Source: Anaerolineales bacterium (GTDB lineage Bacteria > Chloroflexota > Anaerolineae > Anaerolineales > UBA6663). From it: a stretch of 34,830 bases of DNA. Shown here in pieces: positions 4,522 through 16,376 of the stretch. Under the pieces are notes generated by a model. It ran no database searches and was not told the origin of the DNA. It was given only the letters and a program-made list of their open reading frames with translations. Both the position numbers and the translations under genes were made by a program. The stretch covers positions 1 through 34,830 of the forward strand of contig JANWXR010000004.1 in NCBI GenBank assembly GCA_025057205.1. Direction: 5' to 3'. How positions within the stretch are numbered: the first letter of the stretch is position 1; every line of letters starts with the position of its first letter.

Positions 4522-5544
4522 ATGCGCGTTTGGTTCTCCGAGCGCCATCGCCGCCATGCCACCGACCCGATCCGCTTTCATGATGAGCCCTATGCTGAAG
4601 TCCCCGCTCGGGCCGAGCGCATTCGTACAGCGTTGCTGGCGGGTGGATTTACTGACTGGGCCGAGCCTGCCGATCATGGTCAGGCGCCGCTTCTGGCCGT
4701 GCACACTCCTGGCCTGCTCGAGTTCCTCCAGACGATTTATCCTGCCAGCCGGGGTCTGCGCCCGGCTACCGCTTTCTTTCAGGCCGATACTTTCGCAACC
4801 CGCAGTGCGCGCCGCCGCTCGCCGCATCCGTGGGCGCAGGTTGGTTACTACGCCTTCGATATCGAAGCGCCGTTCCTCGAAGGGACGTGGGAGGCCGCTT
4901 ACTGGTCTGCCCAGTGCGCGCTCAGCGCCGCCGACGCCGTGCTCGCCGGCGAATGCGCCGCCTACGCGCTCTGCCGCCCGCCCGGCCATCATGCCCTGGC
5001 CGATCAAATCGGTGGCTTTTGCTACCTGAACAACGCCGCCATCGCCGCGCGCTATCTGCAACAGGGCCGGCCGACTCGCGTTGCCATTTTGGACGTGGAC
5101 TATCATCACGGCAACGGCACGCAGGAAATCTTCTACGCCGACCCGACTGTTTTCTTTGTCTCGCTGCACGCTCACCCCGATATCGAGTACCCGTTCTTCT
5201 GGGGAGGGGCGGAGGAGCGTGGCGAAGGGCCGGGCGCGGGCTTCAACCTGAACCTGCCGCTGCCGCAGGGCACGGGCGATGCCGAATATCTTGCGGCGCT
5301 CGATCAGGCGTTAGCCGCCATCCGCGACTACGCGCCGCGCTACCTTGTCGTCTCGCTGGGGCTGGACATTGCGCAGGGCGACCCGGCTTCGCTGGCCGGC
5401 TTTGCTGTAACTACTGCCGGCTTTCGCGCCATCGGCGAGCGGATTGCGGCGTTGGAGCTGCCGACGCTGATCGTGCAGGAGGGCGGCTATCGGCTGGACA
5501 CGCTGGGTGAGAACGCCGTTGCCTTTCTGCGGGCTTTCCGCTGA
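4522..5544 (+). CDS. Histone deacetylase family protein / acetylpolyamine amidohydrolase-like
   Basis: 'RPPGHHA', 'GGFCYLNNAAIAA', 'AILDVDYHHGNGTQEIFY', 'GLDIAQGDP' match the HDAC/AcuC/AphA fold signature. Confidence 0.93.
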   Translation: MRVWFSERHRRHATDPIRFHDEPYAEVPARAERIRTALLAGGFTDWAEPADHGQAPLLAVHTPGLLEFLQTIYPASRGLRPATAFFQADTFATRSARRRSPHPWAQVGYYAFDIEAPFLEGTWEAAYWSAQCALSAADAVLAGECAAYALCRPPGHHALADQIGGFCYLNNAAIAARYLQQGRPTRVAILDVDYHHGNGTQEIFYADPTVFFVSLHAHPDIEYPFFWGGAEERGEGPGAGFNLNLPLPQGTGDAEYLAALDQALAAIRDYAPRYLVVSLGLDIAQGDPASLAGFAVTTAGFRAIGERIAALELPTLIVQEGGYRLDTLGENAVAFLRAFR

Positions 5545-5632
5545 GTGAGCGCTCGGCGCAAGGCGAGTTGCTTCTTTACCGCAGAGCGCGCCGAGTGCGT
5601 GGAGATATGACAATAAAGAACGCTGCGCTCTC

Positions 5633-5755
5633 GTAACTGCTCAGCTGTCCTGATTTATCCGCAGATTACGTAGCTTTTCGCAGAGGCAATCTGTGACCAT
5701 CTGTGACATCTGTGGATTCTTTTCAACGGCTGGAAGCCGTTGCCTGAGCAGTTAC
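5633..5755. mobile_element. MITE-like element, copy A (123 bp)
   Basis: Perfect 12-bp terminal inverted repeats GTAACTGCTCAG/CTGAGCAGTTAC flanked by perfect 8-bp direct repeats GCGCTCTC (5625-5632 and 5756-5763). Internal CTGTGA/CTGTGGAT motifs and a CAACGGCT-gga-AGCCGTTG hairpin (5724-5742). Confidence 0.8.
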
Positions 5756-5808
5756 GCGCTCTCTTCGGTTAGCCCCTCGCCGTAGACTCAAGGATATAAT
5801 TCCCCGCG

Positions 5809-7173
5809 ATGCGCATCGCCATGCTTTCTTATCACACCTGTCCGCTGGCCACGCTCGGCGGCAAAGACACCGGCGGCATGAACGTCTACGTGCGCGACCT
5901 GACGCGCGAACTGGGACGGCGCGGCCTGCGCGTGGACGTGTTCACCCGCTCTCAGGACGAGCATCAGCCGCACGTCAAAGAAGAGCTGGGCTACGGCAAC
6001 CGCGTCATCCACATCCCGGCCGGGCCGGAAGTGCCGCTGCCCAGAGAAATCCTCTACCAGCACGTTCCCGAGTTCGTCGGCGGCGTGCGCGAGTTTGCGC
6101 GTGCCAACGACCTGCACTACGACGTGATCCACGCCCACTATTGGCTCTCCGGCGTGGCGGCCCGCAGCTTGCGTGAGACTTGGCACATCCCGTTCGTGCT
6201 GATGTTCCATACCCTCGGCCACATGAAGAACCGCGTTGCACAAAGCGAGGCCGAACGCGAGGGCGCGCTGCGCGTGCAGGTGGAGACCGAGCTGATGGCC
6301 CAGGCCGACCGCCTGATTGCAGCGACACCGGCAGAGATTGCACAAATGCAATGGCTCTACGGCGCCGACATCAGCCGCGCCGTCGTCATCCCGCCCGGCG
6401 TGGATTTGAACCTCTTTTATCCGCGCCCGGCCAACGTGGCGAAGCAACGCATCGGCGTGGACCCCGACCGCATCCTGCTCCTCTTCGTCGGGCGCATCGA
6501 GCCGCTCAAGGGCCTGGAGACTCTGCTGCGCGCGCTGGCCGTTCTCAAGGAGCGCGGCGTCTGCCAGTGCAACCAGCTGGCGCTCTCCATCATCGGCGGC
6601 GACCCGGAGGAAGATGCCGCCCAGCGCAATGCAGAGATGGAGCGCATCAAGGCCCTGCGCAGCCGGCTCGGCCTGGAGGGGATGGTGACCTTCCTGGGCA
6701 AACAGGATCAGGACACGCTACCCGATTACTATTCCGCCGCCGACGCCGTCGTGATGCCGTCGCACTACGAGTCCTTCGGGATGGTGGCGCTGGAGGCGAT
6801 GGCCTGCGGTACACCCGTCATCGCCTCCGAAGTGGGCGGGTTGGCCTTCCTGGTCAAGGACGGCGAGACAGGTTTCCACGTGCCGGACCGCGACCCGGAG
6901 GCGCTGGCCGACCGCATCTGCGACATCATCACCGACCCGCTGCTGCGCGCGAAACTGGGCGGCCAGGCGGCGGAGTACGCGCGCAGTTACTGCTGGCCGC
7001 TCATCGCCGATAAAATCATCGCAGTTTATCGCGAACTACACACAGGCCGTGCACCGGCCTGGCTGGAGCGAAGAGGCAAGGCGCACGATGGTGCCGCCCT
7101 TACCAGCGAAACAGCCTCCGCATCACCCGATCCCACACCGCGTCCGGCAGGAAACGGCGCAGCAGTATATTGA
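5809..7173 (+). CDS. Glycosyltransferase family 4 protein, MshA-like
   Basis: 'MRIAMLSYHTCPLATLGGKDTGGMNVYVRDLTRELGRRGLRVDVFTR', 'VVIPPGVDLNLFYP', 'LLFVGRIEPLKGLETLLRA', 'PSHYESFGMVALEAMACGTPVIASEVGGLAFLV' match GT4 GT-B enzymes of the MshA/sucrose-phosphate-synthase type. Confidence 0.92.
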   Translation: MRIAMLSYHTCPLATLGGKDTGGMNVYVRDLTRELGRRGLRVDVFTRSQDEHQPHVKEELGYGNRVIHIPAGPEVPLPREILYQHVPEFVGGVREFARANDLHYDVIHAHYWLSGVAARSLRETWHIPFVLMFHTLGHMKNRVAQSEAEREGALRVQVETELMAQADRLIAATPAEIAQMQWLYGADISRAVVIPPGVDLNLFYPRPANVAKQRIGVDPDRILLLFVGRIEPLKGLETLLRALAVLKERGVCQCNQLALSIIGGDPEEDAAQRNAEMERIKALRSRLGLEGMVTFLGKQDQDTLPDYYSAADAVVMPSHYESFGMVALEAMACGTPVIASEVGGLAFLVKDGETGFHVPDRDPEALADRICDIITDPLLRAKLGGQAAEYARSYCWPLIADKIIAVYRELHTGRAPAWLERRGKAHDGAALTSETASASPDPTPRPAGNGAAVY

Positions 7174-16286: not shown

Positions 16287-16376
16287 GTGTGCACGCAAAA
16301 CATGTCAGTCGCACCCTGAGCGGAGCGAAGCGCAGTCGAAGGGGCGGCACGTTCCCTGACAACTTGGCGTGCACAC
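16287..16376. mobile_element. Second MITE-like element (90 bp)
   Basis: Terminal GTGTGCACGC/GCGTGCACAC (imperfectly extended inward by AAAACATGTCAG / CTGACAACTTG) flanked by perfect 8-bp direct repeats CCTCGTTG (16279-16286 and 16377-16384). Core CCCTGAGCGGAGCGAAGCGCAGTCGAAGGGG. Confidence 0.75.

What the first reader, a model, noticed from the sequence alone, without database searches (positions are those of the whole stretch)
5625..5763. Non-autonomous MITE-like element (copy A) with perfect TIRs and 8-bp target duplication
Intergenic 5633-5755 is exactly bounded by GTAACTGCTCAG and CTGAGCAGTTAC and flanked by GCGCTCTC on both sides. It is too short to encode a transposase and contains an internal CAACGGCT/AGCCGTTG hairpin and CTGTG(A/G) motifs. 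An 8-bp duplication and a shared length with copy B point to cut-and-paste mobilisation by a transposase acting in trans.
Basis: seen in the sequence. Interest (0 to 1): 0.65.

Follow-up and report, generated by a model that had tools for sequence, protein, structure and literature searches.

The report
Short transposon stowaway of IS66 type
This is a 123-base DNA parasite that carries no gene and has spread to dozens of places in its bacterial genome, most likely by borrowing the jumping enzyme of IS66 (ISBst12-type) transposons; the same end sequences turn up across related bacteria wrapped around completely different hairpin-forming sequences.

Summary
5633-5755 (123 bp) has perfect 12-bp inverted ends (GTAACTGCTCAG) and a perfect 8-bp duplication (GCGCTCTC); it is the only such pair in the window. 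No second copy with these ends ("copy B") lies in the window, but the 2.48-Mb draft genome holds about 50 related stretches. Of 18 complete copies, 12 have perfect 8-bp duplications, each at a different target. The ends match IS66-family transposons of the ISBst12 group. An IS66 transposase relic with such an end lies in the same genome, full-length relatives have such ends and 8-bp duplications, and ISDge4, shown to transpose, has GTAACTGCTCAG as one end. So it is a non-autonomous IS66/ISBst12-type MITE, moved in trans. Cut-and-paste is not shown.

Beyond copy A, 43 of 396 Anaerolineae genomes carry 109-139-bp elements with these ends (zero control matches), up to 208 in one genome. Of 134 examined, 104 have duplications of at least 7/8 (chance 0.2%). 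Their interiors fall into 26 unrelated groups, mostly strong hairpins, some built from intergenic palindromes that mostly occur without the ends. Constant ends around exchangeable hairpin cargo is the more interesting result. Weak point: IS66 transposase genes are not significantly enriched in element-bearing genomes.

The parts
5625..5632 (.). left copy of the 8-bp target-site duplication, GCGCTCTC
5633..5755 (+). the 123-bp non-autonomous element (copy A); no coding capacity for a transposase
   Evidence: orientation + is that of the family alignment A1 and is arbitrary
5633..5644 (+). left 12-bp terminal inverted repeat GTAACTGCTCAG, the IS66/ISBst12-type end
5657..5717 (+). main interior hairpin (ATCCGCAGAT ... 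ATCTGTGGAT), kept in the other copies of this family
   Evidence: (whole element z = -5.5)
5744..5755 (-). right 12-bp terminal inverted repeat CTGAGCAGTTAC
5756..5763 (.). right copy of the 8-bp target-site duplication, GCGCTCTC

Best explanation
Copy A is a non-autonomous miniature inverted-repeat element (MITE) of the IS66 family, ISBst12 group. It encodes nothing. An IS66-type DDE transposase supplied in trans recognises the GTAACTGCTCAG ends and inserts the element at a staggered 8-bp target, leaving an 8-bp duplication; surviving insertions lie mostly between genes. Shown: the ends, the duplications, the multicopy family, one nested insertion into a related element, and agreement of the ends with those of IS66/ISBst12-type transposons. 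Inferred: that this transposase moves it, that it was mobile recently, and the chemistry of the move (cut-and-paste or copy-and-paste is open). More generally, the same 12-bp shell encloses unrelated, mostly hairpin-forming interiors in Anaerolineae; I infer that interiors are acquired as cargo, and that pairing is kept by templated correction of the palindrome or by selection. That last part is a hypothesis.
For: About 50 related stretches in the genome; 18 complete copies read, 12 with perfect and different 8-bp duplications. Nested insertion in G008 with duplication TGAGCAGT, present once in an uninterrupted end. IS66 transposase loci with GTAACTRYTCAG-like ends and 8/8 duplications, e.g. 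L071, L074, L077, L138, L139. Relic IS66 transposase (PF03050) next to GTAACTACTCAG in the same genome. ISDge4, ISBst12 group, transposes with ends GTGACTACTCAGCA/GTAACTGCTCAGCA and an 8-bp repeat (PMC12898284). Same shell in 43/396 Anaerolineae genomes, controls 0; 104/134 elements with duplications of at least 7/8, null 0.2%. Intergenic bias, 5/17 against 85% of random sites in long frames.
Against: No intact IS66 transposon was found in this genome; only one truncated relic. Across 396 genomes IS66 transposases are not significantly more common where the shell is present (16/43 against 98/353, p = 0.21), and the genome with 208 copies (G273) has no PF03050 match. Missing multicopy IS in draft genome bins may explain this but was not tested. 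No interior similarity to the IS loci, so copy A is not a simple deletion derivative of any IS seen.
Confidence: 0.88

Rival explanations
1. A MITE moved by a transposase of another family that happens to share GTAACTNNTCAG-like ends and an 8-bp duplication.
For: IS66 transposase genes are not significantly enriched in shell-bearing genomes, and the richest genome has none detected. Other IS families also make 8-bp duplications (own knowledge).
Against: The specific 12-bp end is found flanking IS66 transposase genes in many phyla with 8/8 duplications and in an experimentally mobile IS66-family element. No other transposase was seen between such ends, although only IS66 was used as a query.
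Confidence: 0.08
2. A shrunken IS66 element made by internal deletion, whose interior is leftover IS sequence that has since diverged.
For: This is a usual route to a MITE; L173 in another genome is such a case, with transposase C-terminus sequence between the ends.
Against: None of the other interiors resembles any of the 115 IS-bearing loci; the interior of copy A is a CAGATT/AATCTG hairpin that also occurs without the ends in G041 and G008.
Confidence: 0.03
3. Not mobile: a chance pair of inverted and direct repeats, or a host regulatory hairpin (terminator or RNA).
For: The element folds strongly (z = -5.5) and lies between genes.
Against: Perfect, different 8-bp duplications at many sites, nested insertion, chance expectation 0.02, no Rfam match, no terminator-like site in the element by consensus scan.
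Confidence: 0.01

Closest known systems
IS66 family, ISBst12 group (e.g. ISDge4 of Deinococcus geothermalis)
   Same: The 12-bp end: one end of ISDge4 is GTAACTGCTCAG(CA), identical to copy A; 8-bp target duplication (PMC12898284).
   Different: Those elements are about 1.5 kb with a single transposase gene; copy A has 123 bp, no gene, and an unrelated hairpin interior.
Bacterial MITEs derived from IS elements (e.g. MITEPsy1 of Pseudomonas syringae, MITECca01 of Cardinium)
   Same: Short, no transposase, ends like those of an IS, target duplication, multicopy, mostly intergenic (PMC3189936; PMC9769881).
   Different: MITEPsy1 is linked to ISPsy2 (IS5?) with 4-bp duplication and MITECca01 to an IS982 element that shares subterminal sequence; here the ends are IS66-type, the duplication is 8 bp, and no sequence inside the ends is shared with IS loci.
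IS66-family elements with passenger genes (tIS66, e.g. ISPa75 with fosZ)
   Same: IS66 ends enclosing sequence unrelated to the transposon core (PMC12888890).
   Different: tIS66 keep their transposase and carry a gene; copy A has no gene, and the ends are of the ISBst12 type.
Intergenic palindromic repeats (REP and similar)
   Same: Interiors are palindromes found between genes; one interior type, CATTGCGAG...GAAGCAATC, is in 120/396 Anaerolineae genomes.
   Different: REPs proper are 20-40 bp and linked to REP-associated tyrosine transposases (PMC3733652, PMC2817692, abstracts only); here the palindrome sits in an IS66-type shell with 8-bp duplications.

Membership tests
MITE (non-autonomous miniature inverted-repeat element) | short (under about 300 bp) with terminal inverted repeats | tested here: met
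   123 bp, 12/12 ends
MITE (non-autonomous miniature inverted-repeat element) | no transposase gene | tested here: met
   length excludes it; no ORF of 80 aa or more lies within the element
MITE (non-autonomous miniature inverted-repeat element) | target-site duplication at many independent sites | tested here: met
   12 of 18 complete copies in this genome 8/8, all different; 104/134 class-wide at least 7/8
MITE (non-autonomous miniature inverted-repeat element) | ends recognised by the transposase of a full-length element in trans | not testable with these tools
   end identity only; needs a mobilisation or binding assay
MITE derived from its parent by internal deletion | sequence inside the ends shared with a parent IS | tested here: not met
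   no interior similarity to 115 IS-bearing loci except L173 of another genome; the true parent of copy A may not have been among them
IS66 family, ISBst12 group (ends) | GTAA... terminal repeats of the ISBst12 type | tested here: met
   same 12-mer or 1-2 changes at ends of IS66 transposase loci and of ISDge4
IS66 family, ISBst12 group (ends) | 8-bp target duplication | tested here: met
IS66 family, ISBst12 group (ends) | intact IS66 transposase in the same genome | tested here: inconclusive
   one truncated PF03050 relic beside a GTAACTACTCAG end; genome 64% complete, 715 contigs

The most novel reading that the evidence does not exclude
IS66/ISBst12-type ends act as a reusable shell that captures and spreads otherwise independent intergenic palindromes, so that one transposase family disperses many unrelated palindromic repeat families in Anaerolineae; one genome can hold several cargo types in the same shell (G172: four interior groups in six elements).
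Probability: 0.4. Interest if true: 0.65.

Novelty: new variant of a known kind. Interest (0 to 1): 0.45.

Why it matters
Bacterial MITEs are usually explained as shrunken copies of an IS. Here the ends stay constant while the interior is unrelated to any IS seen, differs between genomes and is mostly a strong hairpin; at least one interior type is a palindrome that mostly occurs without the ends. If confirmed, this is a testable route by which such palindromic repeats, whose means of spread is mostly unexplained, are carried around genomes. For this genome it identifies a high-copy repeat that shapes its intergenic regions.

Tried and rejected
Second copy in the window: none. Intact parent IS in the genome: only a truncated relic; single unpaired ends elsewhere are degraded MITE pieces or chance matches inside genes. 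Association of IS66 transposases with shell-bearing genomes: not significant. Orthologous empty site in family relatives: the two flanking genes match on different contigs, and upstream DNA is not conserved. Shell in viral contigs: 0 exact matches. Copy A in plasmids: no match. Rfam on 5400-6000: nothing. Promoter- or terminator-like site inside the element: none. Outer inverted repeats around CATTGCGAG palindromes that lack the IS66 shell: 3 of 10 against about 14% in shifted controls, and no convincing duplications, too few to claim. Literature on IS66-derived MITEs: none found in the open-access library; subscription papers and ISfinder were not searchable. A search for the palindromes as text returned only primer sequences.

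Full report
OBSERVATION. CTGAGCAGTTAC, GCGCTCTC at 5625-5763. It is the only place in the window where 12/12 inverted ends coincide with an 8/8 duplication; shuffles give 0.02 such cases at 11/12 or better. No second element with these ends is in the window. It lies between a histone-deacetylase-family gene (4522-5544) and a glycosyltransferase gene (5809-7173).

FAMILY IN THE SAME GENOME. The genome (G000; 2.48 Mb, 715 contigs, 64% complete) has 51 similar stretches. Of 18 complete copies of 110-125 bp that were read, 12 have perfect 8-bp duplications, all different, and one more has 7/8. A near-identical subgroup (L006, L009-L013), five of six with perfect duplications, suggests more recent activity. 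Two longer copies (L029, 250 bp, 8/8 duplication; L019, 242 bp) are the same element interrupted by a second repeat. Sites fall mostly outside long reading frames (5/17 against 85% of random sites in the same loci), as expected for insertions that survive.

NESTED INSERTION AS AN EMPTY-SITE TEST. In G008 (same order) one related element sits inside another. The inner one is flanked by TGAGCAGT, which occurs once in an uninterrupted right end (C-TGAGCAGT-TAC), and the outer one keeps its own CATTTAAC duplication. This compares a filled with an empty site, for a related element and not for copy A itself.

THE PARENT. The ends are those of IS66-family transposons of the ISBst12 group. Loci found with the IS66 relic as query often show GTAACT(A/G)(C/T)TCAG-like ends around the transposase gene, many with 8/8 duplications, mostly 1.4-1.7 kb apart; L138 (2,606 bp) has GTAACTGCTCAG at both ends. 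In G000 itself GTAACTACTCAG at C310:13425 is followed by a truncated PF03050 transposase. ISDge4 of Deinococcus geothermalis, ISBst12 group, was seen to transpose, with ends GTGACTACTCAGCA / GTAACTGCTCAGCA and an 8-bp repeat; its authors describe copy-and-paste (PMC12898284). So mobilisation in trans by an IS66-type transposase is well supported by anatomy. Cut-and-paste is not supported by anything here.

ONE SHELL, MANY INTERIORS. The pattern GTAACTRYTCAG-N(85-115)-CTGARYAGTTAC occurs in 43 of 396 Anaerolineae genomes, with zero matches of the reversed control in every genome; G273 has 208. A phylum-wide draw adds seven genomes outside the class. Of 134 distinct elements (38 source labels; ten loci were not tied to a genome), 89 have 8/8 and 104 at least 7/8 duplications, against 0.2% for mismatched flanks. 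The interiors form 26 similarity groups; representatives of 20 fold with z below -3, median -4.5. One genome can hold several interior groups in the same shell: four in G172, two in G122, G337, G321 and G165, and two in G008. Interiors do not resemble the 115 IS-bearing loci, except L173, which carries transposase C-terminus sequence and has no duplication. One interior type, CATTGCGAG...GAAGCAATC, is far commoner than the shell: 120 of 396 genomes, for example 165 matches in G401, which has no shell element. Capture of pre-existing palindromes fits this; loss of the shell after insertion is not excluded.

HAIRPIN EVOLUTION. In G273, 12 of 42 consensus stem pairs change on both sides while pairing is kept, and the loop occurs in both CTTCGG and CGAAGG form, as if inverted. 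In the own family 6 of 29 consensus pairs have at least one both-sided change, which is modest. Templated correction of quasi-palindromes, or selection for folding, would explain it; counts on related copies cannot tell the two apart.

WEAK POINTS. IS66 transposase genes are not significantly enriched in shell-bearing genomes (16/43 against 98/353, p = 0.21), and the richest genome has none detected. Loss of multicopy IS from draft bins is a likely but untested reason. That no IS66 MITE has been described rests on an open-access library only. Elements were found with a fixed end pattern, so the true range of sizes and ends is wider than counted, and similarity groups depend on the BLAST threshold used.

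VERDICT. Copy A is a real, multicopy, non-autonomous IS66/ISBst12-type MITE (confidence 0.88). Taken alone it is a new member of a known kind. The constant shell around exchangeable hairpin interiors, seen across a class, is what makes it a new variant worth a second look.

Noticed in passing
window 16287-16376: A second, unrelated mini-element: ends GTGTGCACGCAAA, 90 bp, 8-bp duplication CCTCGTTG. The genome has 42 similar stretches of about 80-105 bp; 9 of 20 loci read have exact 8- or 9-bp duplications.
   Followed up: partly
L029 1316-1565, L019 610-851, L022 1501-1748 (G000): Copies of the MITE are interrupted by another dispersed repeat (about 120 bp, with ACTGAAAAAA-like ends), in both orientations.
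   Followed up: partly
G273 (208 copies; L172, L181, L188, L237-L256, L269-L274): One Anaerolineae genome of about 3.4 Mb carries 208 copies of a 112-bp IS66-shell hairpin element and no detected IS66 transposase; stem arms change in step and the loop occurs in both orientations.
   Followed up: partly
L032, L034, L036-L038 (G041, G008): The CAGATT...AATCTG hairpin of copy A's interior also occurs between genes without the IS66-type ends; what moves it there is unknown.
   Followed up: partly
120 of 396 Anaerolineae genomes, e.g. G401, G130, G122: The CATTGCGAG...GAAGCAATC palindrome is abundant with and without the IS66 shell (up to about 290 matches in G098); no clear own duplication was seen at ten copies without the shell.
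   Followed up: partly
L128 (Ktedonosporobacter rubrisoli) and G752, G762, G708, G660: 131-bp IS66-shell mini-elements with yet another interior in large genomes of the phylum outside the class; in G762 three lie nearly head to tail (C6:242033-242441), and in L128 one seems to lie between two IS66 copies.
   Followed up: no
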